Assembly (NCBI GenBank): GCA_937873155.1
Contig: CALMVZ010000010.1
Span: 248,001-312,000, forward strand
Direction of reading: 5' to 3'
Length of the DNA stretch: 64,000 nucleotides
Origin: an uncultured Bacteroidota bacterium
Lineage (GTDB): Bacteria > Bacteroidota > Bacteroidia > B-17B0 > Aurantibacillaceae
A program made the translations under genes and the position numbers. The notes below the pieces were generated by a model. It ran no database searches. It was not told where the DNA came from and saw nothing but the letters and a program-made list of their open reading frames with translations. Within the stretch, counting starts at the first letter, position 1. The number at the start of each line of letters is the position of its first letter. Shown here in pieces: positions 22,426 to 41,350 of the stretch.

Positions 22426-22453
22426 TCGCTATAGTTTTTCTTTAACTGCATAT

Positions 22454-22485: not shown

Positions 22486-22671
22486 TTAATTACCCTATTT
22501 ATTTCCATTAATCGTTCAAGATATTGATTAACAACCATTTAATAATTTTTGCTTGTACTCCCGACCATTATTTCGTCCAAAAAAGATAAAGAATTGATTT
22601 TGTTGCAGTTGATGTTTTTCATTGACAATTTAATCTCCTTTTTCACAGAAACTTATGTTAATTTTAACTAT

Positions 22672-22704
22672 TTTGGAGACTTATTACCGAATTCATAATT
22701 TTTG
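22672..22704 (+). promoter_or_regulatory. Promoter of the defence island
   Basis: TTTG (22672-22675), 20 bp, TAATTTTTG (22696-22704; one T longer than TAnnTTTG). The ATG at 22721 follows after 16 bp. As all seven large genes behind it are 33 bp or less apart, it may drive the whole set. Confidence 0.55.
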
Positions 22705-22720
22705 CGTTGCTAAATACTAA

Positions 22721-25700
22721 ATGGGGACTAAATTTTTCACAAATGAAGGTCAAAACACTTTGCTTCAAAAATTCAAAGGTGTTTTTGAGAACAATAAAGA
22801 CATTGAGTTTTTCGATGCACTAATTGGTTATTTCAGAGCTTCCGGATATTTTAGGATCAGACAATTTTTACATGATGTTCCTCAAATCAGAATTTTAATC
22901 GGTATTAATGTCGACAAGATTATTGAGAAGTACCATTCAAAAGGTCTTTTGTTTCAAGGCGATGCCAATCAGACCTTGGTCGAGTTTCTAAACGAAGCCA
23001 AAGAAGATATCCAACAATCAGATTACAATCGTGAAGTTGAAGAAGGCATTTTGCAATTCATAAAAGACATTGCTTCTAAAAAAATTCTGATTAAAGCACA
23101 CCCAAGCAAAAAGCTTCATGCAAAAATTTATATTTTCCGCCCCGACAAATGGAACGAACATCGTTCAGGTAGTGTAATTACAGGCTCTTCAAATCTTACC
23201 GATGCAGGACTTGGTGCAGGAGATAATTTTAATTATGAGTTTAATGTTGTTCTAAATGATTATGATGATGTGAAGTTTGCTTCTGATGAGTTTGAAAAAC
23301 TTTGGTTGGAAGGGATTGCAATCTTGCCTGTAGAAATAGAAAGAGTAAAACAAGAGACTTATTTAAATGAAAACTTCTCTCCTTTTGAAGTTTATATAAA
23401 ATTCCTAATTGAATATTTTGGCAAGAGCGTTGAGTTTGATCCTAACTCGGTAAGTGATTTGCCTAAAGGATTCAAAAGACTTTCTTATCAAATTGATGCG
23501 GTTAACGAGGGATTTAAGTTGTTACAAAAGCATAATGGTTTTTTCCTTGCCGATGTTGTTGGTTTGGGAAAAACAATTGTCGGAACATTAATTGCGAAAA
23601 AGTTTTTCTATTCAAACGACTTCCCTTCGCACGTTTCTAATATTTTAATTGTTGTACCTCCTGCAATTAAAGAAAACTGGATTGAAACATTAGAGAAATT
23701 CCAATTGCATAATTACACTATCATTACTAATGGAAGTTTGCATAAAATTAGTGATCCTGAAAAGTATGACTTGATTTTAATTGATGAGGCACACAAATTC
23801 CGAAACGATACAGCAGAAGCGTATAACGAGTTACAGAAACTCTGCAAAACAAAAACAAAACGCATTTTAAAAGATGGTTCTAAAGCGGAAAAAAAAGTAA
23901 TTCTTATATCTGCAACGCCATTAAATAACCGCCCTGAAGACATAGCCAATCAAGTTTATTTATTTCAGGATGCAAAAGATTCTACGCTTGAAATTTCCAA
24001 TCTTCAACATTTCTTCAGAAAAAGAATTGATGAGTATAAAAAACTGAAAGACAATCCGAGTATTTCAGAAGTACAGGAAGGCGTTAAAAAAATCTATCAG
24101 GAAATAAGAGATAAAGTAATTGCCCCTCTTACAGTTCGCAGAACAAGAAGCGATTTGAAAGCTCATGAACAGTACACTTCCGATTTGGGAAGCCAGGGTA
24201 TTGTTTTTCCTGATATTGAAAAGCCAAGAAAAATATTTTATCAATTAGGTGAAAGTCTCGATGACTTGTATGACAAAACAATGTATTTGCTAAGTCACGA
24301 AATTGATGGTGTAAAATATTATCGTTATCAGGCAATCAAATTTTTATTAGCAAGTAAAAAATCAAAATATAAAAATGCTGACGTTGCATCTGCTGCGTTG
24401 GCCAAGATTATGAAAACCCTTCTTGTGAAGAGGATTGATAGTAGCTTCTTTGCATTCAAAGCGTCCCTAAACAGATTTGCTGAAGCAACAGGAGCAATGA
24501 TTAAAATGTTTGAGGCAGGAACGGTGTTCATTGCTCCGAACTTAAACGTAACAGAATATATTGTTGAAGAGCGCGAGGACGAGTTAATGCAACGAATTTT
24601 AGATTTAAAAGAAACCGATCCAACAATAGAAATTTGTACACCGGATGATTTTCAGCAAGAATTTTTTGAAGGTCTTAAACGTGACTACGCAATTTTAGTT
24701 GATTTAAATAACCGATGGAAGAATGTTACAGAAGATCCAAAATTGGATGAGTTTGTAAACAGGATAAATAATGAGTTGCTTAACAAGGAAATTAATCCAC
24801 AATCAAAGTTGGTAGTTTTTTCTGAGTCGAGGGAAACTACCAACTACTTAGTTGAGCATTTAAAAAGTTTAGGCAGAACAGATGTTTTAGAGGTTCATGC
24901 CGGAAACAGAAATAATTTAAGAGAAACTGTAAGAAATAATTTCGATGCTAATATTCCCCGTGAATCCTATCGTTCAGATTATAACATTGTTATTTCTACA
25001 GAAGTATTGGCAGAAGGTGTAAATCTCCACCGTGCCAACGTGATTGTAAATTATGACACTCCTTGGAACTCAACAAAATTAATGCAACGGATTGGTCGGG
25101 TTAATAGGATTGGATCAATCGCACCAAAAGTTTATATCTATAATTTTTATCCGACTTCAAAAGTTAACGATGACATTGAGTTGGAGAAAAAAGCAATAAT
25201 GAAATTACAAGCCTTCCACTCCGCATTAGGTGAGGATAGCGAGATATATTCTCCTGATGAGGAAACACAATCTTTCGGATTGTTTGATAAAAATGTTGAG
25301 GAAGAGAAAGATGAGAAGTTGGCTTTTTTAATGGAACTAAGGAAGTTTAAAGAAGAAAATCCTGAATTATTCCGGAGAATAAAAAATATGCCTTTAAGGG
25401 CTCGTGTTGGGCGGAAGGAAAGAACTAAGCGAGATACAACTATTTGTTTTATTCGAAACAATAGAAGAGATGCTTTCTATTGGATGCGTTCCGATGGTTC
25501 TTTGGAGGAAATGACTTTTGTTGAAGTGTCGAGAGAATTCAGGGCAGACACACCCGAAAAGGGAATTGAACTTCATGATGAGCATCATACTCACGTTAAC
25601 AAAGCACTTCTTGATTTCCACACTAAGTTACAAGAAGAGATGGCAAGTGGTCAAGTTGTAGATACTACACAGGGGCCAAATGAAAAACGTGCTTTATCAT

Positions 25701-26008
25701 ATTTGGATGGATTTTTATCTCTTCCATTTATTGGTGAAGTTGAAAAGGATAAAATAAAAGCCGCGAAACAAGCGATAAAACTCGGTAGGTTTCAAAAACT
25801 ACAACGTGATGTTAATGCACTTAAGAAAAACGTAAAGAAAACCCCAATGAAAGCGGTAGATTTATTAGATGCTATCATTAAGATAATTGATAAGTATCCA
25901 ATAGAGCATGGCGACAATGGTGATTCAAGACCAACTGTAACAATCAAATCATTTGAGAAATTTAAACCTGAAATTATTATTTCAGAGTCTTTTTCTTTCA
26001 CTAAATAA
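22721..26008 (+). CDS. PLD-nuclease / SNF2-type helicase-translocase
   Basis: A 1095-aa defence protein. Residues 1-210 form a phospholipase D-like nuclease domain with LHAKIYIF (HxK, about 132) and GSSNLTDAG (about 163). Then comes a SNF2-like SF2 motor: Walker A DVVGLGKT near 277, LILIDEAH near 354, SATPLNNRPEDI, and in lobe 2 STEVLAEGVNLHRAN and QRIGRVNRIG near 790. It is likely to move on DNA and cut with the PLD domain. The methylase gene starts 5 bp downstream, so the two look like the restriction and modification parts of an ATP-dependent R-M system, comparable to PLD-type enzymes such as NgoAVII or CglI. Confidence 0.85.
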   Translation: MGTKFFTNEGQNTLLQKFKGVFENNKDIEFFDALIGYFRASGYFRIRQFLHDVPQIRILIGINVDKIIEKYHSKGLLFQGDANQTLVEFLNEAKEDIQQSDYNREVEEGILQFIKDIASKKILIKAHPSKKLHAKIYIFRPDKWNEHRSGSVITGSSNLTDAGLGAGDNFNYEFNVVLNDYDDVKFASDEFEKLWLEGIAILPVEIERVKQETYLNENFSPFEVYIKFLIEYFGKSVEFDPNSVSDLPKGFKRLSYQIDAVNEGFKLLQKHNGFFLADVVGLGKTIVGTLIAKKFFYSNDFPSHVSNILIVVPPAIKENWIETLEKFQLHNYTIITNGSLHKISDPEKYDLILIDEAHKFRNDTAEAYNELQKLCKTKTKRILKDGSKAEKKVILISATPLNNRPEDIANQVYLFQDAKDSTLEISNLQHFFRKRIDEYKKLKDNPSISEVQEGVKKIYQEIRDKVIAPLTVRRTRSDLKAHEQYTSDLGSQGIVFPDIEKPRKIFYQLGESLDDLYDKTMYLLSHEIDGVKYYRYQAIKFLLASKKSKYKNADVASAALAKIMKTLLVKRIDSSFFAFKASLNRFAEATGAMIKMFEAGTVFIAPNLNVTEYIVEEREDELMQRILDLKETDPTIEICTPDDFQQEFFEGLKRDYAILVDLNNRWKNVTEDPKLDEFVNRINNELLNKEINPQSKLVVFSESRETTNYLVEHLKSLGRTDVLEVHAGNRNNLRETVRNNFDANIPRESYRSDYNIVISTEVLAEGVNLHRANVIVNYDTPWNSTKLMQRIGRVNRIGSIAPKVYIYNFYPTSKVNDDIELEKKAIMKLQAFHSALGEDSEIYSPDEETQSFGLFDKNVEEEKDEKLAFLMELRKFKEENPELFRRIKNMPLRARVGRKERTKRDTTICFIRNNRRDAFYWMRSDGSLEEMTFVEVSREFRADTPEKGIELHDEHHTHVNKALLDFHTKLQEEMASGQVVDTTQGPNEKRALSYLDGFLSLPFIGEVEKDKIKAAKQAIKLGRFQKLQRDVNALKKNVKKTPMKAVDLLDAIIKIIDKYPIEHGDNGDSRPTVTIKSFEKFKPEIIISESFSFTK

Positions 26009-26013
26009 TAATC

Positions 26014-29000
26014 ATGGTAAAAGACGAATTAAGAAAATTATTGAATCAGCCGTACAAATCGGACAACTGGAAAAAAGTAACTGAGTTTGTTTTTCCTAAT
26101 GTTTCTTATTTACAGAAACCGCAGGACATTCCATTTGTTAACGAAAAAATAGAGAGCTTCAAACAAATTGGTAATGTGAAACTTGCTGATGGAAAAAACT
26201 TAGCAATGTTTGAAGTTCATGTCGCTGAAAATATAAACTTAGCCAGTAATAGAGTTGAATTAAGAAAATTAGTTGCCCCCCTTATAGATCAGGAGCGAAA
26301 TCATGGCGTTCTTGTTATATATGAACAAGGGAAGGATGATTATAGATTTACCTTCACCGCAAAGAGTACAGAGTTTGATGAGAATGAAGGTGATTTTAAA
26401 AATTTAGAAACTGATGCTAAACGTTTCACTTATATATTAGGGAAAAACGAAAGTTGCAAAACCGCTGCAAATCGTTTTTGGGAGTTAAGTTCTAATAAAG
26501 AAAAAGCTACTATCAAGGATGTAGAGCAAGCCTTTTCGGTGGAGCGGTTGAATAAAGAATTCTTTGAAAAATATAAAAATTTTTATGAGGATTTTGTTCA
26601 GCACATTACAGGGAAGCGTTTTGAAAAGGAAAAAGGTAAGTGGGTTGAAAAGACAAAAGGAAAACCAATTCCTGAACACAAAACAGTTTTTGGTGGTGAT
26701 GATAAAGTAACTCGAAATTTTGTTAAACTTTTATTGGGTCGTTTAGTTTTTATTCAGTTTCTCCAAAAGAAAGGTTGGATGGGTGTTCCGGCTTCGAATA
26801 AAAAATGGAAAGATGGTGAAAAGGATTTTTTAGCAAAGCTTTTTGATTCCTGTAAAAGCAAGGATAAATTTCACACTAACAGCCTTTACAAGTTATTTTA
26901 TAATGCATTTAATACTCCGAATAGGGCAAATGATATTTTTGATCTGACCGGGAGTCGAGTTCCTTACTTGAATGGCGGGTTATTTGAAAATGAATACCCG
27001 AATACCGATAAGATTAATTTTCCGGCAGAGTATTTTCAACAACTCTTAGATTTTTTCGGACAGTACAATTTTACGATTGACGAAAATGATCCGTTGGATC
27101 ACGAAGTTGGAATTGACCCCGAAATGCTCGGTCACATCTTCGAAAATTTATTGGAGGACAATAAAGATAAGGGAGCTTATTATACGCCCAAAGTTATTGT
27201 GCAGCATATGTGTCAAGAGAGTTTAATTCAGTATTTGAAAGCACATTTAATAAAAGATAAGCGGTGGCCTAAAAACAAGAAGGATGAGATTCGATTTACG
27301 GAGAAATTAGAGGATTTTGTTCGAAAAAAAACTGCATCCTCAATTATTGATTTTGACCAAGAGATTGCTTTCGCACTTAGAAATGTGAAGATATGTGATC
27401 CTGCAATTGGTTCTGGTGCATTCCCAATGGGATTACTTAATGAAATATTTTATTGTATGCAGGTGCTTTATGATGCAAGTCCTGATGTTGTCGGTGAAGT
27501 TTGGGAAATGCAAAATTGGCAAGCAGATGTTGTTAAGAAGAACATAATCCAACATAGTATTTATGGGGTTGACTTAGAAAAGGGTGCAGTTGATATTGCT
27601 CGATTGCGCTTTTGGTTAAGTCTTATTGTTGACGAAAAGGAACCTTATCCATTACCGAATCTTGATTTCAAGATTATGCAGGGAAACAGCTTATTTGAAA
27701 GCTATGAAGGTGTTGATCTTAGTAAAATTGCATCAAACAAGACAGTTTTAACGGAGGTCTCGCATGATCTATTTGGTAATCCGACAAACAGTCAACTTAG
27801 CATAACAGACTCGGAAATTATTGAAACGAGTAACATTCATGAACTTATTGAACAGTACTTTAACGCTCAACAACCTGAAAAGAAACAAAAATTAAAAAAG
27901 GAAATCGATGATATTATTCATCGGCACATCGATTATAATCTTGAGTTTGAGGAAAATCGAATTCATATTGCTTTAGCTAATGTAAGGAAGAAATTATCTT
28001 TTGTTAATCTTGATAAAAAGCAACCCAAAGGGACTTACGAAAAGAACTTAAAGATTAAAGAAATTCTCGATAAGGAGTTAAAAACAAAAGAAAGCGAGCT
28101 AAAATCTCTTCAAAAGAAAAGAAAAGAATTGCATGATTTGCAGGTAAAAGCTGAAAAGCCTTATTTCCTGTGGCATTTATTCTTTAAGGATGTATTTGAA
28201 GAAAATGGTTTTGATATTGTGATTGGAAATCCACCTTGGGGTAGTGGATTAGACAACGATTTAGTTTATTTAAAAAAACTATATCCTGATACTACAACTG
28301 AACATACTGACAGCTTCAAAATATTCATTGATGCTGGGTTGCGACTTATTAAGGAGAATGGTTGTCTTTCAATGATAATTCCAAATACCTTGTTGCGCCA
28401 AAGCCGATTGAAAGATGTTAGGAAGCTGCTATTACAGAAAGAAGTTGTTTCCGTTATTAATTTAGGAGAAAATATCTTCGAAGAAGTTGTTACACCTTCG
28501 TGCATTGTTTTTTGCAAGAATTCAGCGTATAATGATGAACTAACGGTTTCTTATTATGATATTTCAAATTTGAACCTTTCAAAACGAAATGTAGAGTTAC
28601 GAAATACAAAAAAATATAGTAAGATCTTGCAGTCAGTGTTTTTAGAAAATCCGGAATTTTCTTTTACACCTCCCATTCTACTTCACTCTGTTCCAACCAT
28701 CCTGTTAGGTAACTTTAACGATTTCCAATGTAAGGATGTCGGTATACAATGTCAAAGAAATAATGTTGGCAAAGAAAAACGAGCAAAAAGTGATTTAGCT
28801 AAAAAGATATTTCTTGATCATAAGTTTAATGCGAAGTCTATCATGTATTGGAAAGGGCGTGACATTGATAGATATAAAGCTAAAAAAGAAACTGGAAGAT
28901 TTTTCAGAAATGATTATGCAACACTCGTGAAAGAGAACGAGACTGTTTATCTGAACGAATCAGTATATAATTCAAATCCTAAAATTATATTCAGACAAAC

Positions 29001-29445
29001 TGCCGACCACATAATTGCTGTTTTAGATGAAGACAAAAGATGGTTTGATGGGAGTGCAATTGGCCTCATAAAAAGTCAAGAGTCTAACTATGATATTTTG
29101 TATCTCCTGGGTATCCTTAATTCTAAATATTCTAAATGGTATTACCACAAATTGGTTAACGAAGAAGGCAGGGTTTTTGCACAAGTCAAATTATCTAAGG
29201 CAAAACAAATTCCAATTAGGGTAATCGATTTTTCGGAAAAGGAACAGAAGAAATTACATGACTCTTTGGTTGAATTGGTTAAAAGGATGATAGAACTGAA
29301 TAGCGATTTTGATAGTAAGGCCAATGAGTTGTCTGATTCTGTTGACAAAGCAATTGATAAGCTCGTTTATGAATTGTACGATTTAAAGCCGGAGCAAATT
29401 AAAGTAATTGAGGAAGCGTATCAAACAAACGAACTTAAAGTTTAA
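26014..29445 (+). CDS. Eco57I-type DNA N6-adenine methyltransferase with target-recognition domain
   Basis: A 1143-aa class I SAM enzyme. SAM motif I is CDPAIGSGAFPMGL near residue 462, with DLEKGAVDIARLRFWLS (motif II/III) behind, and catalytic motif IV IGNPPWGSG near 739. Residues 985-1080 (NPKIIFRQTADHIIAV, GILNSKYSKWYYHKLV) resemble the TaqI-type C-terminal recognition domain. The N-terminal 400 residues contain ELRKLVAPLID and a GAYYTPKVIVQHM segment before motif I. No nuclease motif was seen in it. It should protect host DNA from the PLD-SNF2 partner upstream; target unknown. Confidence 0.88.
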   Translation: MVKDELRKLLNQPYKSDNWKKVTEFVFPNVSYLQKPQDIPFVNEKIESFKQIGNVKLADGKNLAMFEVHVAENINLASNRVELRKLVAPLIDQERNHGVLVIYEQGKDDYRFTFTAKSTEFDENEGDFKNLETDAKRFTYILGKNESCKTAANRFWELSSNKEKATIKDVEQAFSVERLNKEFFEKYKNFYEDFVQHITGKRFEKEKGKWVEKTKGKPIPEHKTVFGGDDKVTRNFVKLLLGRLVFIQFLQKKGWMGVPASNKKWKDGEKDFLAKLFDSCKSKDKFHTNSLYKLFYNAFNTPNRANDIFDLTGSRVPYLNGGLFENEYPNTDKINFPAEYFQQLLDFFGQYNFTIDENDPLDHEVGIDPEMLGHIFENLLEDNKDKGAYYTPKVIVQHMCQESLIQYLKAHLIKDKRWPKNKKDEIRFTEKLEDFVRKKTASSIIDFDQEIAFALRNVKICDPAIGSGAFPMGLLNEIFYCMQVLYDASPDVVGEVWEMQNWQADVVKKNIIQHSIYGVDLEKGAVDIARLRFWLSLIVDEKEPYPLPNLDFKIMQGNSLFESYEGVDLSKIASNKTVLTEVSHDLFGNPTNSQLSITDSEIIETSNIHELIEQYFNAQQPEKKQKLKKEIDDIIHRHIDYNLEFEENRIHIALANVRKKLSFVNLDKKQPKGTYEKNLKIKEILDKELKTKESELKSLQKKRKELHDLQVKAEKPYFLWHLFFKDVFEENGFDIVIGNPPWGSGLDNDLVYLKKLYPDTTTEHTDSFKIFIDAGLRLIKENGCLSMIIPNTLLRQSRLKDVRKLLLQKEVVSVINLGENIFEEVVTPSCIVFCKNSAYNDELTVSYYDISNLNLSKRNVELRNTKKYSKILQSVFLENPEFSFTPPILLHSVPTILLGNFNDFQCKDVGIQCQRNNVGKEKRAKSDLAKKIFLDHKFNAKSIMYWKGRDIDRYKAKKETGRFFRNDYATLVKENETVYLNESVYNSNPKIIFRQTADHIIAVLDEDKRWFDGSAIGLIKSQESNYDILYLLGILNSKYSKWYYHKLVNEEGRVFAQVKLSKAKQIPIRVIDFSEKEQKKLHDSLVELVKRMIELNSDFDSKANELSDSVDKAIDKLVYELYDLKPEQIKVIEEAYQTNELKV

Positions 29446-29453
29446 AGAGTATT

Positions 29454-32400
29454 ATGGCGTGGAAGTTAGACCCAAATACGGAAAAACAATGGAAGCCTAT
29501 CATAAGTGGGTTATATGAATTATTATATAACAACAAAGAGAAAGTTAAATCATTACCGGGTTTTGAGTATGTAAAAGATTTAGGCGTTCTTGATTTTCCC
29601 AGTATAGGTGAGGCGCGAAAATTCGAAGTTTCTTACAAAGGAACAGGCTATGCTTTATACATTCATTTTTATAATAGAGATAATGGGAATTGTCTTGCTA
29701 TCACTAACGAATTAAATGGAAGAAATTTATTACATCTTGTTTTAGATAGTTATTTAGAGGGAACTCCATCAGGAACTCGGATATGGCATGATGGTAAAAT
29801 AACAGGCATAGCAAATCTTACATCTGAAAAATTAATTACTTATGTTAAAAGGAAAGAACCAAGTTTAATTAAAACCGAACCTGATTATGGTGACTATGTT
29901 GAATTTGGTATAGTTGATGAGAAAGAGAAGTTATCCTTTTCAAATCCAAAGATTTTAAAATTATTTTCCAATCTTATATTGTTTGGTATTCTCCGCCACG
30001 AAATAAAAAAGGATTTTAAAGCAGAAGATTTTGAAGAAGACGATATCAACGCTGAATCCGATAAAAAATTTCTATTAGTAAATATTACATGGAACAGCAA
30101 GGACTGGCAAGAGACAAGCGAGGATAAAAGTAACCACAGACACGTTGTTGGTGGTGGTGTTCCCCATGAGAGTTGGAATTTCGATTTTAACAACCCAAGA
30201 AATACCGAGGATTTTATTTATGGGTATGCTCAATTTACCAATACACCAACAAGAGTTAAAGGAGATAATAACTTACTGATTTTCTATTCTCAAAATAAAA
30301 TAGTTGGTTTCTACGGCAAGGCCAAAATCATATCCGAAGCCGTTGAAGTAAACGAAGTTGAAAGTTACAACCTAATAGGATCAAGGCCATTGTGCGTGTT
30401 GCTGAATAATAAAATTGATGACGCTAAGGAAAAAGGTTATTTAGAAGATAAACAAAGAGTTGGTCAGACTGGGTTTACTTATTTAGAGAAGGAATCTACT
30501 ATTGAAAAAATATTGAACGAGGCGATCAACCTTAACCCTGATAAAAAGAAAATCTTAGAGTCGATCAAGGATTGGGCATTTAATAATTCAAGGAGATATA
30601 CTCCTGAAGAGATTAAAGAAATGTTTACTTCCTATTTAAATGAACGTGGGCCACAAAGCAGCGACAAATATATTAGTAGCATTGAAGGAAAAGTAAGTGA
30701 ATGGTGTCGCAAACACAAATTTGTCGGAGAAACGGTCTATGAAAAATACCTCCCAACCGAAGTTGATGAAATGTTCAACAAATTAGGTGATCTTGAAGAT
30801 ATACGAATAAACAAAAACACATTCTTTACCCCTATGAATTGGTATAGGGATTTTTGTGATGATTTAGCAGCAAAAGGAACGAATGTTTCCTACTGGATTT
30901 TTCAAGCTAACCCAACCAAAGTTTATCGAATTGTTGATGCATTAAAAGCAGGTGTACTTAATAGTTGGATGGTTAATCAATATAGCAAGGAAATTAAAAA
31001 GGGAGACAAAGTTATTCTTTGGGTTACCGGGGAGATTGCAGGGGTTTATGCGTTGGCAACCATTACTTCTGATATTTCAATTTTTAATAATGAAGAGGAA
31101 CGAGAATACTATATTGATAAATCACAAATTACTCCAAGTGAAAGAGTAAGTCTTCGAATGGATCACAATCTTGTTGCAAGGCCAATATTCAAAGAAGAAG
31201 TTTTAAATAATTCAAATTTATCTGATTTAAATCAAGGAAGAGCAGGAACAAATTTCCCTGCTACAAAATTACAGTACGAAACAATTTTGCATTTAATAAA
31301 CTCCAAACCTATGGATTCAAATAATCACAACCCGCTTAATCAAATTCTTTTTGGCCCTCCTGGGACTGGGAAAACCTATCATACAATTTCAGAAGCAATA
31401 AAAATTGTTGACTCGAAATATTATGAAGCTAATTCGCAAAATCGTGAAAAATTACAGGAGCGATTTAACGAACTTTTAATAAAGGATTGGGTTAACCCAA
31501 GTGGGCAGATAGCGTTCTGTACTTTTCATCAATCCTTCAGTTACGAGGATTTTGTTGAAGGCATAAAGCCTAAAACTACAAAAACGCAACAAGTTTACTA
31601 CGAAATTGAAGATGGGATTTTTAAAAGTATTTGTCGCCACGCAGATGCAATAAATAATGCCAAGTCATTAGTGAAGGATAATTTAATTTCTTTTTCACAA
31701 GCTGAATTTAATACGGCAATATTTTATAAAGTTTCTTTGGGAGATAGTACAAAGGCGGAAGACAAAGAAATTTATAATTATTGTATTAATAATAACTGCA
31801 TCGCAATAGGCTTTGGTGACGGTATTGATTTTTCAGGTAAGGACGAAACAGAGGTAAATGAGATTGTAGCGGAAAATAAACTTGATGCGTACACAGCATC
31901 CCAAATTAATTACTTCAAAAATTATTTGAAGGTTGGCGATTACGTTGTTATTTCTAATGGAAATAGCTATATCCGTGCTTTAGGCAAAGTAACAGGGGAA
32001 TATGAGTTTAAGGAAAATGGAGAAATCAGGTACGATCATTTCCGTAATGTTGAATGGCTATTTAGTGATCGCGACATTCCTGTCAATGAATTTTACAGCA
32101 AAGGATTACAACAAAAAACAATTTATAAGTTAAAAAGCGAGTTCATTATTCCTGAGTTTTTTGTTCGTGAAACAAAAAGGGCTGAAGTAAAAGACGAGCA
32201 AAAAAACTTTGTAATAATTATTGATGAAATAAATCGTGGCAATGTCTCTTCAATTTTTGGAGAGTTGATCACTCTTATTGAACCAACTAAAAGAGCAACT
32301 TGTCCGGAAGAATTATCTGTAGTATTACCGTACTCCAAAACCCAATTTAAAGTTCCGTCAAATGTTTTTGTTGTAGGAACAATGAATACAGCGGATAGAA

Positions 32401-34114: not shown

Positions 34115-34124
34115 AAATATTAAA

Positions 34125-36170
34125 ATGGGGAAATCAGTAAATATTCAGGTTGCAAAGGATCACCTTGAGAGGTTGACAAAGGCGAATGGCACTACCGCTT
34201 TAATGGAATTGATTTGGAATAGCCTTGATGCTGATTCTAAGAACATACGCATTAAGACTTTTGATGGTTCATTAGGAATTAATCAAATCGTCATTGAAGA
34301 TGATGGTAATGGCATCAATTACAAAGAGGCTGAAAATGTATTCGGCACACTTGGGGGGTCTGCTAAAAAGATTAAAAGAATAAGTCCAGGGGGTAGAAAA
34401 TTGCACGGAGAAGAAGGAAAAGGAAGATTCAAAGGATTGGCTTTAGGCGATTTGGTGAAATTTGAAAGTATATTCAGAGATAACGGCTCTTGCAAATACT
34501 TTGATATTAAAGTTGATGCAAATCATATTCAGGGTGCAGAATTGAGCGATTTAAAAACAGCAAAAGGTGGTGAAACCAAAACTGGCGTTAAAGTAACCAT
34601 TAACAATATTAATCAAGAGAACTCTTCAATTATTTCAACTCAAAAAATAGTTCATCAAATTGAAGAAAAACTTGCAGTATATTATTTAGCATACCCGGAT
34701 TTTAACATTGTTATTAATAATAAAAAGCTTGACTTTGAGCGTTTCATTACAAATAAATTTGAAGACAGTTTTAAAGTCCAACCTGAAGATGGTAGTCCTG
34801 AAATAGAATTTAAAGTAAGAATTCTTGAGTGGTCAATCCAAAATGAAAGAAACATTTTTCTTTGCAATCAAGCTGGAATAAGTTATACCGAAGTTCCTTT
34901 AAGAATTAAAGCTCCATCGTTTAACATTTCAGTTTATTTGCTGAGTGACTATATTGAAGAATTACAGAAGTCCGGCAATATAGCCTTTGGAGAAAATGAA
35001 ATTATCCTGCGACCTGCTCTTGAGGGTGCAAGGGATATGGCAAGAAAATATGTTAGAGAAAGGCTGCATGAAAATGCTCGTGAATTTATTGATGAGGCAA
35101 AAAAGGAAGGTATTTATCCCTATGAAGGAAAGCCAAAAACTGAAGTTGAGACTGTTCAACGTAAAGTGTTTGATATTTTGGCATTGAACATTAACGAATT
35201 TGTCCCAAAGTTTTCTGAACAAGAGAAGGCAAATAAGAAACTAACATTTAGTCTTGTTAAAGAGGCGTTAGAATCCGACAGCAAATCTTTACATAAGATA
35301 ATTGCTGAAGCAATTAACCTTCCAAAGGAAAAGCAGGATGAATTAGCTGAAATTCTTGAAAATACTTCTCTTGCCGATATTACAACTACTATTAAGGAAG
35401 TAACGGATAGGCTTAGAATTTTATATGAATTGAAAATTATTCTTTTCGATCCTAAATTGCGTAAGAAAATTCTTGAAAGAAAACATTTGCATCAAATTGT
35501 CAAGCATAATACATGGATTTTTAGTGATGATTATTCCTTGGGCGCAGAAGATGTTAATTTAAAAAATGTATTAAAAACTCATTTGCAATTCTTAGGAAGA
35601 ACCGATTTTCAAGCTGTAGTAGATGAAGAAAGTAATGACGATCTAAAGGATATCCCGGACATCTGCCTCTATAAACAATTTCCAAGAGGCAAGGCAGGTC
35701 ATTTTGAAAATCTCGTGGTAGAATTGAAAAGGCCAACAAAACACTCTGGTTCGGATGAGTTGGATCAGGTTAAGAAATATGCTCAAGCCATTTCTGCTGA
35801 TGGGAGGTTCGATACAAAAAAGACCGAATGGACAGTTGTATTACTTGTTACAGAAATGGAAGCCTCATTGGAGTTTGAATATGAGCAAGAAGGCAGACCG
35901 CTTGGCCAAATAATTAAGAAAAAGAACATGACTGTTTTGGTCAAGAAATGGATTGATGTAATTACGGACGCAGAAGCGAGGTATCAATACTTAAAGGAAA
36001 AACTTAATTATTCTATCAGCCATGATGAGGCAGGGATAACACTTTTAAAGAAAAAATATTCGGAGTACCTACCTGAAGCAGAAGACTCAAAAAAGAAAAC
36101 AGGAAAAAAGAAAACTGCTTCAACTCCCAAAAAGAAAACAAAGAAAAAAGTGGTTAAAGCAAAAAAGTAA
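34125..36170 (+). CDS. GHKL-type ATPase fused to a PD-(D/E)xK-like nuclease motif
   Basis: A 681-aa protein. The N-terminus is a GHKL/MORC-type ATPase: N-box LMELIWNSLDADS, G1 IEDDGNGI, and GRKLHGEEGKGRFKG as the ATP lid. A helical middle follows. Residues about 505-590 hold IPDICLYKQFP and, about 15 residues on, FENLVVELKRP, then LDQVKKYAQAI, a PD-x-ELK pattern as in type II-like nucleases. The last 30 residues are Lys-rich. GHKL ATPases clamp DNA; with the nuclease motif this would be an ATP-gated nuclease. It starts 10 bp after mcrC and belongs to the same defence set; no named system was matched to it. Confidence 0.75.
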   Translation: MGKSVNIQVAKDHLERLTKANGTTALMELIWNSLDADSKNIRIKTFDGSLGINQIVIEDDGNGINYKEAENVFGTLGGSAKKIKRISPGGRKLHGEEGKGRFKGLALGDLVKFESIFRDNGSCKYFDIKVDANHIQGAELSDLKTAKGGETKTGVKVTINNINQENSSIISTQKIVHQIEEKLAVYYLAYPDFNIVINNKKLDFERFITNKFEDSFKVQPEDGSPEIEFKVRILEWSIQNERNIFLCNQAGISYTEVPLRIKAPSFNISVYLLSDYIEELQKSGNIAFGENEIILRPALEGARDMARKYVRERLHENAREFIDEAKKEGIYPYEGKPKTEVETVQRKVFDILALNINEFVPKFSEQEKANKKLTFSLVKEALESDSKSLHKIIAEAINLPKEKQDELAEILENTSLADITTTIKEVTDRLRILYELKIILFDPKLRKKILERKHLHQIVKHNTWIFSDDYSLGAEDVNLKNVLKTHLQFLGRTDFQAVVDEESNDDLKDIPDICLYKQFPRGKAGHFENLVVELKRPTKHSGSDELDQVKKYAQAISADGRFDTKKTEWTVVLLVTEMEASLEFEYEQEGRPLGQIIKKKNMTVLVKKWIDVITDAEARYQYLKEKLNYSISHDEAGITLLKKKYSEYLPEAEDSKKKTGKKKTASTPKKKTKKKVVKAKK

Positions 36171-36203
36171 TGGATTTTCAACCAACGATTAATATTTGTA
36201 AAA

Positions 36204-39200
36204 TTGAACAAGTCTTTAGATAAAATAGGTGCTTATGATAGGGTTAGCGAAATAACCGAGACTAACAATGCCTATTTATTTGATGTACAAGGACCGGATG
36301 CAAAAGTATATTTCGCAAAGGTTCCGAAAAACTTGGACGCGAGTAGTTCTGCCGCAAGGCAATTTAGTTCTGTTGCCCGTCATTTAAAAAAAATCAATAG
36401 CGAGTATATTAATAAGGTTATCGATTCAGGAGATGAGGAGAGTGCAGGATTCTATTTTATGATTTTAGAAAAAATCGAAGGTGCAAGAACATTAGAACAG
36501 TACGCTAAAGATGAAACAGAAGCAACGGTTAAGCACCTAAAATATATTTTACAGATATGGTACAACTGTTCTGAAGCACTTGATATTGCCGCCTCTAAAA
36601 ACATCTTTCACAAAGACCTTCACCCACGCAATATTCTTATAGATTCCGAAAGCAAACCCGTTATTATTGATTTTGGCATCTCGTTACTTGAGCATACCAT
36701 CTCTAAAAAAAGGTTGGAGAATGAATTTAGTACAAAATTTTCTGCGCCTGAATTTATAAAGAAGGAAGAGTCTCGACTCCAATGTCGTACAGATTTTTAT
36801 TCACTTTCATTGTCCATGATGTACTTGCTACTTGGACACACTCTATTTTATGAGGACGAAAACAACGAAACACGTTTGAATAAAATAGTGGATTTGTACA
36901 AACCATACATTTCTCAGGCAGGTCTCGATGCATTCAAAGAGCTATTCAGAAAATCCTTTCACTCCGATCCCAACCAAAGATATTTTAGATACTCCGAATT
37001 AAGAGACGCAATAAATAACCTCTTTGAAGTTATAAATCATACCCCGGAGAAGCCTTTAGCATTACATTTTGACACAACTGATTCTGTAGAAGAATTTATT
37101 CGTGAAATAAATATAGATGGAGTTTCAATAGCTGTAAACGAACTACGCCATATTCAAACTAAAAATATTGTCGCAAAACTTGCTTCGAAACATTTTTTGG
37201 CAAATTCTTGTTTCTTTTCAAATAGAGGTAATTGTCTTGAAGTTCGTGGTCTAAAGAAAATTGACAGTTTAGAAGAGAATGAAATAAAAAACCATACTTG
37301 GGTTTTGACCAAGGGAACGCAACTCGTTGGAATAAATTTTGTTTCAAAAAAGCCTATTGAGGCTACCATTTCGGACAATTACGATGTTTTTAATCTACTG
37401 GAAAAATTATTTATCGATAAGCGTGATACTACACGGTCTTCATTGCCTAAAAATTCAAGAGAGATTTTAAAGACATATTTGACCTTATTGAATGAAGAAA
37501 TAAATTACTTAAGAAACGATGCCTTTAAGGTGAAGTATTCGGGATTTGAAATCAACGCTTCAAATGAAGGCTGCTTCAAAATTATTCCTGATGAAAAAAC
37601 ATCAACGGAGCAAGTAAATAATTTTCTAAAACGATCTCAAGCATCATTCCGGAAGGGAACTGAAATTGTTTTAAACGCAAGTGAAGATGAGCAAGGATTA
37701 AAATCAAAGCAAAACGTTGGATACAGTACAAAGTACGACCACAAACAGAATTTATTGTTTATAAAAGATTTCCCAATAGCTAAAAAGGAAGAAATAGCTC
37801 AGAAGGGGTATTTAATTGAGGATACTTCTTTAATGGAAATTCAATTTAAGAGACAAATTAATGCAATCAAAAATTTTGAGAATGACAACGTCACAAATTC
37901 AGAGCTAAGGAAATACCTTTTTCAACCTGAAAATCTCCATAAATTAGCAAATGATGTCGGGGATTTGATTGCTGAACTTAAGGTAATTTCAACTGATAAA
38001 AATGGGGATGAAGTCCAATTTCAGGATGCACAAAAGTTTGCGATTCTAAAATCTTTATACCGTCCACCTATTACTTTAATTCAAGGGCCTCCTGGGACTG
38101 GTAAAACAACAGTAATAACTGAAATCATTCGGCAGATTTTAGCGAAAGATAGGCAAGCCAAAATATTAATTACTTCTCAAACTAATTTAGCAGTTGACAA
38201 TGTCCTCTCTAAAATGGTTAATGTTGATGGTATCAGTTTTATTCGTTTAGGCAGAAATATTGACGATGATATTATTGATAAACATTCTTTTGGCAAGAAA
38301 TTAAATCTATGGGCGAGAAAAACAAAAGGGAATTGCGAAAGGAATTTTATAGAGCAAAAACAAAAAACAACTTCTAAAGAAACTAACTTATCTCCTTTTT
38401 TGAATGCAATTTTACAGGAGATAAACAAAAAGCAAAGTTGGGATGTCACCAAAAAATATTTAAAGCAAGTTTTGACCGGAGCATTCGCAAAGGGGTTTGA
38501 GAGCCTTTCTGATTTCACTGAAAGCAAAGCCCTCTTTGAGAAAGAGTTGGCAAAATATCTCGGAGAACAGCACATCTATTTGAATAAGTTGGATCTACTT
38601 AAAAGAAAATGGATTTCAATTTTATCAAATATTGAAAACAAAGACGAACTTAAATCCAAATTCATCTCAAGTATAAATATTGTAGGAGCGACAGCTAATC
38701 ACATTGCAGCAGGAATGTATCGCGATTTCAAATTTGAATTTGACTATGTCATAATGGACGAGGCAGCTAAAGCTACCCCTGCGGAAACATTAGTGCCAAT
38801 TAACATGGCACATAATTTAATTTTAGTAGGAGACCATGAACAACTGCCCCCATTAGTTACAGCAACCGAAGCTGTAAAAAAGCAGGTGGAAGCCAAACTT
38901 AACAATGAGGGCGAAATGGTCGATTTTGACAAGGTTTACTACGATCAACCAAGTCTATTTCAAATAATGTACGATGGCTCTCCTGAAGAGTATAAGGAAA
39001 TGTTGAATTTGCAATTTCGTATGCCGAAACAGATTGGAGATATAATTTCAGCTTACGTTTATAATAATAGATTAAAATCAGGAGAAAAAAGTGGTCGACC
39101 ACACAACATAAAACTTAAGGCTACCACCTCTATGTTTATGTGTGATATAAATAAATTCCCTGATAGGTTTCATAAAATAGATGCCATTGGAAAGTCCTCC

Positions 39201-39710
39201 TATAATCCTGTAAGTGCAAAAGTGATTATTCAGATACTTACAAAGCTCGATAGTCTTACGGAACTATTTGTGGATAAGGAAAAAGAAAAGGGATATGAAA
39301 TTGGCGTTATTACTGGGTACGGGAAGCAGGCGGAATATTTGTCAAATGAAATTGAAAGCGCCTACTTCAAAAATATTTCATTAAATCATAACCTTACAAT
39401 TGCTACAGTAGATAGTTTTCAGGGTTCTGAAAAGGATATAATCATATACGACATTGTTAGAAGTGCAAAGACTAAAGACAATACAGGTTTGGGATTTCTG
39501 GAAATGCCAAACCGAATCAATGTTGCTCTAACGAGGGTAAGAAGACTGCAAATTATTGTTGGGGATGCAGATTATATTTTAAATGTTAGCCCAAGTATTA
39601 GGTGGATAAATAATAATCCACAAAAACCATTATTATTGAAAGAGGTTGTTTCACATCTTCATAAAGCGGGTTTTATTTATGACAACTTAAACGATATCTT
39701 TTATGAATAA
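36204..39710 (+). CDS. Ser/Thr kinase - SF1 helicase fusion (Mokosh MkoA-like)
   Basis: A 1168-aa protein with a TTG start (36204). Residues 1-280 form a eukaryotic-type protein kinase: VYFAKVPK (beta-3 Lys), HKDLHPRNILI near 136 (catalytic loop) and IIDFGIS (DFG). Residues about 620-1130 form a UPF1-like (COG1112) SF1 helicase: Walker A IQGPPGTGKTT near 628, VIMDEAAKATPAETL near 850, VGDHEQLPP, TVDSFQGSEKDIIIYD and RINVALTRVRR. A kinase joined to a COG1112 helicase and followed by a PLD gene is the known layout of Mokosh type I anti-phage systems. It overlaps the PLD gene by 8 bp. Confidence 0.83.
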   Translation: MNKSLDKIGAYDRVSEITETNNAYLFDVQGPDAKVYFAKVPKNLDASSSAARQFSSVARHLKKINSEYINKVIDSGDEESAGFYFMILEKIEGARTLEQYAKDETEATVKHLKYILQIWYNCSEALDIAASKNIFHKDLHPRNILIDSESKPVIIDFGISLLEHTISKKRLENEFSTKFSAPEFIKKEESRLQCRTDFYSLSLSMMYLLLGHTLFYEDENNETRLNKIVDLYKPYISQAGLDAFKELFRKSFHSDPNQRYFRYSELRDAINNLFEVINHTPEKPLALHFDTTDSVEEFIREINIDGVSIAVNELRHIQTKNIVAKLASKHFLANSCFFSNRGNCLEVRGLKKIDSLEENEIKNHTWVLTKGTQLVGINFVSKKPIEATISDNYDVFNLLEKLFIDKRDTTRSSLPKNSREILKTYLTLLNEEINYLRNDAFKVKYSGFEINASNEGCFKIIPDEKTSTEQVNNFLKRSQASFRKGTEIVLNASEDEQGLKSKQNVGYSTKYDHKQNLLFIKDFPIAKKEEIAQKGYLIEDTSLMEIQFKRQINAIKNFENDNVTNSELRKYLFQPENLHKLANDVGDLIAELKVISTDKNGDEVQFQDAQKFAILKSLYRPPITLIQGPPGTGKTTVITEIIRQILAKDRQAKILITSQTNLAVDNVLSKMVNVDGISFIRLGRNIDDDIIDKHSFGKKLNLWARKTKGNCERNFIEQKQKTTSKETNLSPFLNAILQEINKKQSWDVTKKYLKQVLTGAFAKGFESLSDFTESKALFEKELAKYLGEQHIYLNKLDLLKRKWISILSNIENKDELKSKFISSINIVGATANHIAAGMYRDFKFEFDYVIMDEAAKATPAETLVPINMAHNLILVGDHEQLPPLVTATEAVKKQVEAKLNNEGEMVDFDKVYYDQPSLFQIMYDGSPEEYKEMLNLQFRMPKQIGDIISAYVYNNRLKSGEKSGRPHNIKLKATTSMFMCDINKFPDRFHKIDAIGKSSYNPVSAKVIIQILTKLDSLTELFVDKEKEKGYEIGVITGYGKQAEYLSNEIESAYFKNISLNHNLTIATVDSFQGSEKDIIIYDIVRSAKTKDNTGLGFLEMPNRINVALTRVRRLQIIVGDADYILNVSPSIRWINNNPQKPLLLKEVVSHLHKAGFIYDNLNDIFYE

Positions 39711-41151
39711 GTGGCATAATAATAAACATAATAAGAAAAAGGATTCCGGAAAGAAGCCCTTCCAAGCCTCTCGTAACCCTAAAGTGGTTTTTAAAAAGCA
39801 AAAGGATCAGTCTAAATCTTCTCAACTTTTTGAAAAATATAAGGATGATTTTGGGGACGAATATTCTCTAAATGATATTATCGAGATTGGCTATCCCTTA
39901 ATCGAAACAAATATTGATATAATCTCGTCCGGCAAACCAAGTGATATACTTCAGGAAATTCATATTCTATTAATTGAATTAGTTAATACTGGATTAGACT
40001 CTAAAGAATCTCTATCTCATTTTCTTGGAGTAACCGAGAATGATTTTGTTATTGACGAATTGTACGCTTTGTTGGAAAATGGGATTCTTGCTATTTCAGA
40101 GGATCAGAAGTACAGGGTCACTACAAAAGGAGAAGTATTTTTGCAAGAGAAGAAATTTATTCCTGTTACAACACAAGAAGATTTCACTTTTTATATAGAC
40201 GGTTTTACAAAGGAGATTCTGGCAGAAGCTCCTTCGACAACATCAAATACTGCTAATAGATTGCTTTCAACAATAAAGGTAGATTTTGACTTTATTCAAG
40301 AGGAATGGATGCACATTAATCTCTGTTTTACAAAGATTAATTCGGGAGATAAGGAAATTGTTGATTTAGCAAATTATAAGAGGAGTATGAATTACAGAAA
40401 AGAATTGTTTCAAAAATTCTTTGTGCTTATTTATTACCCTAAAGATAATTCCGGCAAAAAAATTCAATTGAAAGTTTACAACAACGATTTTAAATTACTT
40501 AAAAAACAAACGGACACCATCAGTAATTTATTTGCTTCAAACAAATTCTTATTTGACTTCTCAAGCGAATTAGGAGAGGCAGAAGTATATAAAAAGCAGT
40601 TTCTTGATACATCTACGGAAATAAAAGACGACAAACTCTCCGGAAAGTATCAGGATATTTCAACATTTGAACATAAAGCACTTATTAAGGATGCATTAAT
40701 GACTGCTGAGTTAGCAGTATATATTGAAAGTCCTTGGATCAGAAGAGCGACAATGGAATACATTCCTGCAATGGATTTCTTTTTGAGAAAGAAAGGAACA
40801 AAACTTTTCATTTCGTATGGTATCGATTCACGTTCGCAAAATGCTCCGCACCCTGAGACTTTTGCTGAGATTGAAAAATTGAAAATAAAATACCCTAACC
40901 GAATAGTAATGATTAGCCTTCCTGACCATTTTAAATCAAAATTTCCAAACCGAAACGGAAGTCATAGAAAACTATTAATTAAAGACTTTGACTACTACAT
41001 AAAAGGAAGTTATAATTGGCTTTCTTATGGCGGTAATGAAACAGCGAATTATGCTGTTGAGGAGGGCACGCAGTTTTTTAGCAATGTAAAAGAGTTTTGG
41101 AAAAAAGTGTTTGAAGATTACAAGTTCGATTTGGAACTACTCGACTTTTAA
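39703..41151 (+). CDS. PLD-family nuclease (Mokosh MkoB-like)
   Basis: A 482-aa protein. A basic N-terminus (NKHNKKKDSGKK) is followed by a winged-helix-like middle (SLSHFLGVTENDFVIDELYALLENGILA). Residues about 330-470 form a PLD-like domain: HKALIKDALMTAELAVYIES, then GSHRKLLIKDFDYYIKGSYNWLSYG with an HxK motif near 420. It is the likely nuclease of the kinase-helicase upstream, with which its start overlaps by 8 bp. Only one clear HxK copy is seen, so it would act as a dimer. Confidence 0.8.
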   Translation: MNKWHNNKHNKKKDSGKKPFQASRNPKVVFKKQKDQSKSSQLFEKYKDDFGDEYSLNDIIEIGYPLIETNIDIISSGKPSDILQEIHILLIELVNTGLDSKESLSHFLGVTENDFVIDELYALLENGILAISEDQKYRVTTKGEVFLQEKKFIPVTTQEDFTFYIDGFTKEILAEAPSTTSNTANRLLSTIKVDFDFIQEEWMHINLCFTKINSGDKEIVDLANYKRSMNYRKELFQKFFVLIYYPKDNSGKKIQLKVYNNDFKLLKKQTDTISNLFASNKFLFDFSSELGEAEVYKKQFLDTSTEIKDDKLSGKYQDISTFEHKALIKDALMTAELAVYIESPWIRRATMEYIPAMDFFLRKKGTKLFISYGIDSRSQNAPHPETFAEIEKLKIKYPNRIVMISLPDHFKSKFPNRNGSHRKLLIKDFDYYIKGSYNWLSYGGNETANYAVEEGTQFFSNVKEFWKKVFEDYKFDLELLDF

Positions 41152-41182
41152 TAATATAGCAAAAGCATTAAAGACAATTTTT

Positions 41183-41350
41183 ATGAGTGATTTAAAAACC
41201 GAAGTAGTTAATTCAGCAAAACTCACTATTACCTACGATACATCCCGAAACAAAGGATCAAATGATTTTTCCAACTTACAGGATTTAAAAAAGTGGTTAG
41301 ATAAAAATCCTCTTGTTGCGGAGAAGTTAGGATATACCAAAAAGAAATAA
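41183..41350 (+). CDS. Small protein at the end of the defence island, 55 aa
   Basis: Unrecognised. Starts at the ATG at 41183 (MSDLKTEVVNSAKLTITYD); the frame continues upstream but only over the PLD gene. Residues 1-20 look like strands, 30-45 a helix (SNLQDLKKWLDKNPLVAEKLG), and the end is KKK. It lies 31 bp after the PLD gene. Could be an accessory or regulatory partner of the last two genes, or belong to the element. Confidence 0.5.
   Translation: MSDLKTEVVNSAKLTITYDTSRNKGSNDFSNLQDLKKWLDKNPLVAEKLGYTKKK

What the first reader, a model, noticed from the sequence alone, without database searches (positions are those of the whole stretch)
22672..41350. Seven-gene composite defence island in one operon-like run
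PLD-SNF2, Eco57I-type methylase, EVE-McrB, McrC, GHKL-nuclease, kinase-helicase and PLD protein are all on the plus strand with gaps of 33 bp or less or overlaps, behind one clear promoter. Two parts resemble known systems (McrBC, Mokosh type I); the first two look like an ATP-dependent R-M pair; the GHKL protein is unassigned. The whole may be several stacked systems or one integrated system that checks DNA modification and transcripts.
Basis: partly seen in the sequence, partly recalled or inferred. Interest (0 to 1): 0.85.

Follow-up and report, generated by a model that had tools for sequence, protein, structure and literature searches.

The report
Four phage-defence systems in one cassette
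Seven tightly packed genes turn out to be four separate, mostly known kinds of virus-defence system that ride together as exchangeable cargo of a mobile DNA cassette, rather than one new combined machine.

Summary
In detail: seven large intact genes on one strand, 22721-41151, spaced -8 to +33 bp. The "one integrated system" reading does not. In relatives they come apart into four modules: (1) PLD-SNF2 plus type IIG-like methylase (partner present in 28 of 31 other loci); (2) EVE-McrB plus McrC; (3) the GHKL-nuclease, not unassigned: it has the architecture of paraMORC3 (described 2008) and of the phage-tested Vibrio protein VcSduA, and lacks the other six genes in 75 of 80 loci; (4) a Mokosh type I pair. 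No other locus examined holds more than two of the four.

New here is the vehicle. The block fills a cargo slot between an HTH-ImmA gene (21391-22425) and a serine recombinase (41942-43489) overlapping tRNA-Leu. Relative G035 keeps both sides (84-96% identity) around a different 20 kb cargo with efflux operons; two others carry type I restriction with SIR2-Argonaute, and type I restriction with TmtA and LmuB-like genes. Homology breaks at 22486-22542 and 41352-41460, almost the limits of the finding. This is an ordinary but well-delimited defence cargo block; the least described part is the PLD-SNF2/methylase pair.

The parts
22721..26008 (+). P1: PLD (HKD-type) nuclease fused to SNF2 helicase/translocase, 1095 aa
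   Evidence: Pfam PLDc_2 2.7e-08, SNF2-rel_dom 9.4e-14, Helicase_C 5e-19; HxK and GSxN kept in all 31 aligned relatives (30 from the phylum sample plus L015), Walker A and DE[AS]H kept
26014..29445 (+). P2: type IIG-like adenine methylase with TaqI-type specificity domain, 1143 aa
   Evidence: Pfam Eco57I 1.2e-29, TaqI_C 1.2e-19; PADLOC REase_MTase_IIG 1.1e-75; methylase motifs kept in 26 aligned relatives, N-terminal ExK-like motif not kept
29454..32870 (+). P3: EVE-McrB GTPase, 1138 aa (EVE 479-613; insert in the AAA domain about 770-880)
   Evidence: Pfam EVE 1e-11, AAA_5 2.5e-12; NCBIfam McrB PRK11331 9.7e-33, 113.6 bits, below its cut-off of 637; signature reads NTAD (NxxD) in the translation
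32870..34114 (+). P4: McrC nuclease subunit, 414 aa
   Evidence: Pfam McrBC PF10117 1.5e-65; PD...DxK motif visible in the translation
34125..36170 (+). P5: GHKL (MORC-like) ATPase with C-terminal PD-(D/E)XK nuclease, 681 aa; VcSduA/paraMORC3-like
   Evidence: Pfam HATPase_c_3 3.4e-18; invariant E28, N32, D59, E533, K535 in 30 aligned sequences, own included; model ATPase part like MORC, Z 21.7; nuclease part PD-(D/E)XK with Shedu among the top ties
36204..39710 (+). P6: MkoA, Ser/Thr kinase fused to SF1 helicase, 1168 aa (TTG start as called)
   Evidence: PADLOC MkoA 7.7e-150 over residues 11-1152; Pfam Pkinase 2.7e-21, AAA_11 6.9e-44, AAA_12 6e-39
39703..41151 (+). P7: MkoB, PLD-type nuclease, 482 aa
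   Evidence: PADLOC MkoB 2.1e-22; HxKx4Dx6GSxN in the translation
22672..22704 (+). possible Bacteroidota -33/-7 promoter in front of P1
   Evidence: 9 of 10 consensus matches; background 0.72 per kb
21391..22425 (-). divergent HTH plus ImmA/IrrE-peptidase gene at the left edge of the cargo slot (possible regulator)
   Evidence: Pfam Peptidase_M78 7.3e-18, HTH_3 1.3e-09; best PADLOC match RmrA 1e-57, weaker CapP 1.2e-19; 91% identical copy at the same place of the sister element in G035
41942..43489 (+). large serine recombinase at the right edge of the cargo slot, overlapping tRNA-Leu
   Evidence: Pfam Resolvase 9.4e-23, Recombinase 3.3e-14; 98% identical copy in G035
43454..43538 (-). tRNA-Leu (caa) at the right end of the element
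   Evidence: ARAGORN, Rfam RF00005; the stretch around it matches in 8 of 8 genomes of the genus, own included
22505..41352 (.). exchangeable cargo slot (limits against G035; 22542/41460 against G019, 22486/41460 against G021)
   Evidence: backbone homology stops at these points; no nucleotide similarity of the cargo to the sister stretches compared at E<=1e-3

Best explanation
The run is a cargo block of four independent anti-phage modules carried by a serine-recombinase element at a tRNA-Leu gene. P1-P2: the methylase P2 marks host DNA at a site read by its specificity domain, and the PLD-SNF2 protein P1 uses ATP to move on DNA without the mark and cuts it. P3-P4: EVE-McrB reads modified bases, hydrolyses GTP and drives the nuclease McrC. 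P5: a MORC-like ATPase clamp gates a PD-(D/E)XK nuclease in one protein, acting alone. P6-P7: Mokosh type I, a kinase-helicase with a PLD nuclease, thought to act on phage transcripts. They are probably co-transcribed and inherited together but do not form one machine. Shown here: gene content, intact motifs, separability in relatives, different content of the same slot in related elements. Inferred: co-transcription, control by the HTH-ImmA gene, and all biochemical steps.
For: P1 relatives in 31 other genomes of a 375-genome phylum sample: P2 within the stretch in 28 of 31, McrBC nearby in 2 of 31, P5 and Mokosh in 0 of 31 (the second McrBC case lies in the adjoining stretch L127). P5: of the best 80 loci kept from a capped list, MkoA or MkoB in 0, an McrB-like gene in 1, strong P1-P2 in 1 (L015), weak P1-P2 in 1 (L075), weak P1 alone in 2 (L053, L067). 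In L015 P5 is 77% identical while P1 and P2 are 46% and 40% (best segments), so they did not travel as one unit. P5 in the phylum sample: 5 other genomes, 0 of 5 with another module within the stretch read. MkoA: 3 other genomes, 3 of 3 beside MkoB, 0 of 3 with another module. Plasmids and a phage carry P5 relatives beside genes other than these. Vehicle: window 4800-22505 and 41352-43531 match G035:C68 at 84-92% and 96%, with different cargo between. G019 and G021 have the same two edges with type I R-M plus SIR2-pAgo and type I R-M plus TmtA plus LmuB-like genes. P5 family: PMC2292703 (passages), PMC12137116 (passages).
Against: Spacing (-8 to +33 bp) and the lack of internal promoter-like sites of equal score fit one transcript. 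P1-P2 and McrBC recur together, same strand and order, in two genomes of another family (G348, G186), and the CoCoNuT paper reports McrB branches associated with a DISARM-like system and with methyltransferases (PMC11090510, passages), so some coupling of modules 1 and 2 is possible. P5 sits directly behind P1-P2 and an SMC-like gene in L015. Limits of the search: only 2 or 3 candidates per genome were scored in the phylum sample, so distant copies can be missed; 9 of 31 P1 stretches are shorter than 19 kb, and the full ones reach only about 3.5 kb upstream and 13 kb downstream; 36 of 80 P5 loci are shorter than 19 kb.
Confidence: 0.87

Rival explanations
1. One integrated seven-gene system that checks DNA modification and transcripts, with all parts needed.
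For: Tight same-strand packing and no internal promoter-like site of equal score; I know of no bench test that excludes it.
Against: No other locus examined holds more than two of the four modules; each module recurs without the others. The P5-like protein VcSduA works as a single gene (PMC12137116, passages), and Mokosh I is a two-gene system (recalled; MkoA and MkoB named as its proteins in PMC11291487 passages).
Confidence: 0.03
2. Two coupled halves: P1-P2 (methylase/translocase) and EVE-McrBC form a functional superoperon in which the methylase sets marks that the McrBC reader must tolerate; P5 and Mokosh are passengers.
For: P1-P2 ... McrB-McrC in the same order and strand in G348 (L126/L127) and G186 (L128); McrB branches associated with DISARM-like systems and with methyltransferases (PMC11090510, passages).
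Against: Only 2 of 31 P1 loci, both from one family; their McrB has no Pfam EVE hit at E<=1, and a PifA-like KAP NTPase gene lies in between. McrBC relatives also sit beside type I and type ISP R-M genes on plasmids, so the partner is not specific.
Confidence: 0.1

Closest known systems
Mokosh type I (MkoA/MkoB)
   Same: Kinase-helicase and PLD protein in this order, overlapping genes; PADLOC profiles 7.7e-150 and 2.1e-22
   Different: No difference noticed; placed last in a longer run
EVE-McrB/McrC type IV restriction
   Same: EVE fused to a McrB GTPase, McrC next door; a common architecture, abundant in Bacteroidetes (PMC7641849, passages)
   Different: Long N-terminal part (1-450): the segments 1-196 and 196-346 scanned gave no Pfam hit, and the insert within the AAA domain only weak unrelated ones; not tested further
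VcSduA / paraMORC3 (GHKL-type Shedu, type I-D)
   Same: N-terminal GHKL ATPase, C-terminal PD-(D/E)xK nuclease, standalone gene; both active sites kept
   Different: No Pfam DUF4263 match at E<=1; 11 of 12 members match HSDR_N_2 weakly instead. The VcSduA sequence itself was not available for comparison
Type-2 BREX-related (BR) systems and DISARM
   Same: HKD nuclease fused to SNF2 helicase plus N6-methylase (PMC12839542, passages); P1 resembles DrmD and more weakly DrmA, P2 resembles DrmMI and PglX below its type IIG match
   Different: No DUF499, DUF3780 or DUF1998 domain in the run and no DrmB match among the rows shown; P1 scores 163 bits against a DrmD cut-off of 610
SCC-like cassettes with large serine recombinases (SCCmec ccr; recalled)
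   Same: Large serine recombinase at a chromosomal site with exchangeable cargo that includes restriction systems
   Different: CcrB score 113.7 against a cut-off of 900; target is a tRNA-Leu gene; other host group

Membership tests
Mokosh type I | MkoA: kinase plus SF1 helicase in one protein | tested here: met
   PADLOC MkoA over residues 11-1152, E 7.7e-150; Pfam Pkinase, AAA_11, AAA_12
Mokosh type I | MkoB PLD protein encoded next to MkoA | tested here: met
   PADLOC MkoB E 2.1e-22; HKD motif in translation, though no Pfam PLD hit; pair kept in 3 of 3 other loci
Mokosh type I | anti-phage activity | not testable with these tools
   no assay
McrBC (type IV restriction) | McrB GTPase and McrC PD-(D/E)xK partner | tested here: met
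   PF10117 1.5e-65 and AAA_5 2.5e-12; NTAD and PD...DxK read in translations
McrBC (type IV restriction) | reader domain for modified bases | tested here: met
   Pfam EVE 1e-11 at residues 479-613; what base it reads is untested
CoCoNuT | NxD instead of NxxD GTPase signature (definition from PMC11090510 passages) | tested here: not met
   P3 reads NTAD
VcSduA / paraMORC3 / Shedu type I-D | N-terminal GHKL ATPase with intact motifs | tested here: met
   HATPase_c_3 in 12 of 12 members; E28, N32, D59, G61 invariant in 30 aligned sequences; MORC-like fold Z 21.7, rmsd 3.5, 283 residues
VcSduA / paraMORC3 / Shedu type I-D | C-terminal PD-(D/E)xK nuclease | tested here: met
   D512 nearly invariant, E533 and K535 invariant; model aligns to PD-(D/E)XK nucleases
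VcSduA / paraMORC3 / Shedu type I-D | the nuclease is of the DUF4263 (Shedu) type | tested here: inconclusive
   No DUF4263 match in 12 members at E<=1. Fold: Shedu 8ti9 Z 10.1, rmsd 3.6, 144 residues, tied with Nt.BspD6I 10.3 and EndoMS 10.1
VcSduA / paraMORC3 / Shedu type I-D | standalone gene | tested here: met
   without the other six window genes in 75 of 80 loci at 60 bits or more; 36 of the 80 loci are under 19 kb
DISARM | DrmA and DrmB (DUF1998) core genes | tested here: not met
   no DUF1998 among the seven proteins; P1 matches a DrmA profile at 9.4e-25 but DrmD better, 1.2e-39, and no second helicase of this kind is in the run
Type-2 BR system | HKD-SNF2 fusion helicase | tested here: met
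   P1; family-level identity not tested
Type-2 BR system | DUF499 ATPase and DUF3780 | tested here: not met
   none among the seven proteins
Type IIG restriction enzyme (P2 alone) | active N-terminal nuclease in the methylase chain | tested here: inconclusive
   the ExK-like place reads EVH in P2 and varies among 26 relatives; no structure

The most novel reading that the evidence does not exclude
The PLD-SNF2/methylase pair (P1-P2), often followed by an SMC/RecF-like ATPase gene, is an unnamed ATP-dependent restriction system in which cutting has moved from the methylase chain to a PLD domain on a SNF2 motor; and the HTH-ImmA/serine-recombinase element is a dedicated carrier that swaps whole defence blocks in and out of one fixed slot under a damage-type switch.
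Probability: 0.35. Interest if true: 0.5.

Novelty: new member of a known kind. Interest (0 to 1): 0.35.

Why it matters
It shows with sister copies that a long operon-like run of defence genes can be a changeable cargo list rather than a machine, which is a caution against reading spacing as function. It also delimits a cassette slot in which further defence modules can be looked for: in two relatives it holds SIR2-pAgo, TmtA and LmuB-like genes within or behind type I R-M genes. The P1-P2 pair is a clear candidate for a bench test. The element's own backbone also encodes a cytosine-5 methylase (8423-9862), so the EVE-McrBC in its cargo should not attack that mark if both are active, a testable self-tolerance problem.

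Tried and rejected
Rejected: integrated seven-gene system; DISARM, BR and CoCoNuT membership; P5 as an unassigned family.

Led nowhere: viral-contig scans with P1, P3 and P6 (single-sequence queries, so close relatives only) found no relatives; megablast of the cargo against plasmids and phages, no match; the MkoA search in plasmids at E<=1e-60, no match; a PDB sequence search with the P3 insert gave only matches at E 0.41 or worse; a search for repeats of 13 bases or more of the tRNA-Leu end within the window, none, so the left end of the element is not mapped (the backbone match runs to about 4800, with a further 99-bp match at 496-594). The empty-site attempt with a genus relative showed only that the neighbouring order is rearranged. 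Fold search of the whole P5 model tested only the ATPase part, so the nuclease part was folded alone. Shedu was not ranked above other PD-(D/E)XK nucleases there.

Counter-cases kept: G032:C32 has the HTH-ImmA gene and a recombinase about 15 kb apart but convergent, not divergent. The slot is not always a defence slot: G035:C68 carries efflux operons, and the one G058:C211 cargo protein scanned is a 7TM sensor-like protein. L155 has a P1-like gene with a histidine kinase behind it instead of P2. L150 and L154 end at the contig end just behind P1 and cannot show P2. Two of the SMC-like calls (L132, L135) lie below Pfam's SMC_N cut-off.

Literature: searches, 120 of the held library. None of the passages I read names the P1-P2 pair as a system, but I read passages only and most subscription papers are not held.
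Full report
What is there. Seven large intact ORFs lie on the + strand between 22721 and 41151 with gaps of 5, 8, -1, 10, 33 and -8 bp. Profile searches give PLD-SNF2 (P1), type IIG-like adenine methylase with a TaqI-type specificity domain (P2), EVE-McrB (P3), McrC (P4), GHKL ATPase (P5), MkoA (P6) and MkoB (P7). The active sites look intact in the translations and alignments. A Bacteroidota-type promoter-like pair stands in front of P1 and none of equal score within 300 bp of the other starts, but such pairs are common in this AT-rich window.

Do the genes keep together? In 375 genomes drawn evenly from the phylum (own included), P1 relatives at E<=1e-60 occur in 31 other genomes, McrB relatives at E<=1e-30 in 28 others, P5 at E<=1e-30 in 5 others and MkoA at E<=1e-60 in 3 others. 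I fetched the neighbourhood of all 31 P1, all 5 P5 and all 3 MkoA places and compared them with the seven window proteins; for McrB I compared only coordinates with the P1 places. Full stretches reach about 3.5 kb upstream and 13 kb downstream of P1; 9 of the 31 are cut short by contig ends (under 19 kb). P2 stands with P1 in 28 of 31. Of the three misses, two stretches end with the contig just behind P1 and one has a histidine kinase instead. McrBC follows P1-P2 within about 20 kb in 2 of 31 (G348, G186), with other genes between. P5 and Mokosh genes are near P1 in 0 of 31. MkoB stands beside MkoA in 3 of 3, without the other modules. P5 has none of the others in 5 of 5.

P5 on a wider scale. 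Other window genes at 60 bits or more: P1-like in 4 (L015, L053, L067, L075; strong only in L015), P2-like in 2 (L015, L075), McrB-like in 1 (L022, where one search also shows a weak McrC), MkoA or MkoB in 0; so 75 of 80 have none. In L015 (Pleomorphovibrio marinus) the order is P1, P2, an SMC-like ATPase gene, P5; there P5 is 77% identical but P1 and P2 only 46% and 40% over their best segments, so P5 has its own history. P5 relatives also sit on plasmids beside a type ISP R-M gene, a cytosine methylase with a LlaMI-type nuclease, or conjugation genes, and in the tail-gene region of Pasteurella phage Pmp14.

What P5 is. Iyer et al. 2008 (PMC2292703; passages read) described paraMORC3: GHKL plus S5 domain plus a restriction-endonuclease-fold domain, with a standalone subset mainly in proteobacteria and Bacteroidetes. 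The Vibrio protein VcSduA has this architecture and protects against phage, both active sites being needed; its authors place it in the Shedu family, type I-D (PMC12137116; passages). The P5 model's ATPase part aligns best with MORC proteins (Z 21.7, rmsd 3.5, 283 residues). Its nuclease part is a PD-(D/E)XK fold with Shedu (Z 10.1, rmsd 3.6, 144 residues) tied with Nt.BspD6I and EndoMS. Pfam did not report DUF4263. I therefore call P5 VcSduA/paraMORC3-like and leave strict Shedu membership open.

What P1-P2 is. The pair is closely coupled (28 of 31). The PLD residues HxK and GSxN are kept in all 31 P1 relatives aligned. The methylase motifs are kept in the 26 P2 relatives aligned, whereas the N-terminal ExK-like place is not kept. 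So restriction probably rests on the PLD-SNF2 protein and modification on P2. Several loci add an SMC/RecF-like ATPase gene. Of 12 neighbour proteins that I picked by place and size and scanned, 7 are of this kind (L015, L125, L132, L133, L135, L137, L147; two of them below Pfam's SMC_N cut-off), 2 are PifA-like KAP NTPases, 1 is a YhcG-type nuclease lying between P1 and P2, 1 is a histidine kinase and 1 gave no clear hit. P1 resembles DrmD and a PADLOC 'HKD+Snf2' profile, and more weakly DrmA, but is far below the DrmD cut-off. The architecture parallels type-2 BREX-related systems (PMC12839542, passages), without their DUF499 and DUF3780 partners. I found no name for this pair in my searches, which cover one open library and were read in passages.

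The vehicle. In G035 (same family, other genus) contig C68 carries the same element in reverse. Window 4800-22505 matches at 84-92% and window 41352-43531, with the recombinase, at 96%. Between them lies a different cargo of about 20 kb, with two efflux operons (Pfam). No PADLOC hit at E<=1e-10 was found in the nine G035 cargo proteins scanned. A 34-residue remnant of a P5 relative (85% identical to residues 618-651) remains beside the HTH-ImmA gene there, so that slot probably once held a P5 gene. In the 87 genomes of the order, the recombinase occurs in 26 and the HTH-ImmA gene in 20 at E<=1e-60, own included. They stand divergently with a cargo between them in seven places, own included (G000:C10, G035:C68, G035:C25, G025:C1, G019:C79, G021:C1, G058:C211); G032:C32 is convergent. 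Cargo in G019: type I M and S genes, a further gene not scanned, SIR2-pAgo, then R. Cargo in G021: type I M and S genes, TmtA, R, then further genes and an LmuB-like one. The other three slots (G025:C1, G035:C25, G058:C211) were read for gene layout only, apart from one G058 protein. None of the six other slots holds P1-P7 as far as blastp at E<=1e-6 shows, save the P5 remnant, and the window cargo has no nucleotide match at E<=1e-3 to the slots compared (all but G035:C25).

Mechanism. Shown: separate modules, intact motifs, different content of one slot in related elements. Inferred from the families: P1-P2 restricts DNA lacking its methyl mark; EVE-McrBC restricts DNA with certain modified bases; P5 couples ATP-driven clamp movement to DNA cutting; Mokosh acts on phage transcripts (PMC11291487, passages). 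The HTH-ImmA gene resembles RmrA best and CapP/CapH more weakly and may switch the block; this is a guess from position and domains.

Verdict. A well-delimited defence cargo block made of known kinds of system, with one pair (P1-P2) that deserves a bench test. The integrated-system reading is not supported.

Noticed in passing
window 8423-9862 (-), with methylase-like ORFs 7120-8423 (-): The element backbone encodes a C-5 cytosine methylase (Pfam 2.3e-68) and two further methylase-like ORFs, while the cargo encodes EVE-McrBC; the two must be compatible if both are active.
   Followed up: no
window 21391-22425 (-): HTH-ImmA gene divergent from P1, 91% identical in G035 beside a different cargo; possible switch for whatever the slot holds.
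   Followed up: partly
L187 4951-14807 (G019:C79) and L188 1501-11393 (G021:C1): In both sister slots a second defence gene (SIR2-pAgo; TmtA) sits inside a type I R-M operon between the S and R genes.
   Followed up: partly
L183 15814-15915 (G035:C68, about 216711-216818): Short remnant of a P5 relative beside the HTH-ImmA gene in an element that now carries efflux operons.
   Followed up: partly
G035:C68:238937-240457: A second, 71% identical recombinase gene in the same orientation at the other end of the G035 element, suggesting tandem elements at one site.
   Followed up: no
G035:C25:80063-82012 (L186) and G025:C1:190515-192464: P5 relatives (43%) lie about 20 kb outside the HTH-ImmA gene of two related elements, in G035:C25 next to a stretch matching the window backbone at 68-70%.
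   Followed up: no
L013 7986-9944 (Pasteurella phage Pmp14, OR544131.1): A GHKL-nuclease gene in the tail-gene region of a phage, annotated hypothetical.
   Followed up: no
L015, L125, L132, L133, L135, L137, L147: SMC/RecF-like ATPase gene behind P1-P2 in these relatives but not in the window; possible third part of that system.
   Followed up: partly
window 29454-30800 (P3 residues 1-450): Long N-terminal part of EVE-McrB; the segments 1-196 and 196-346 that I scanned gave no Pfam hit, so further reader domains may hide there.
   Followed up: no
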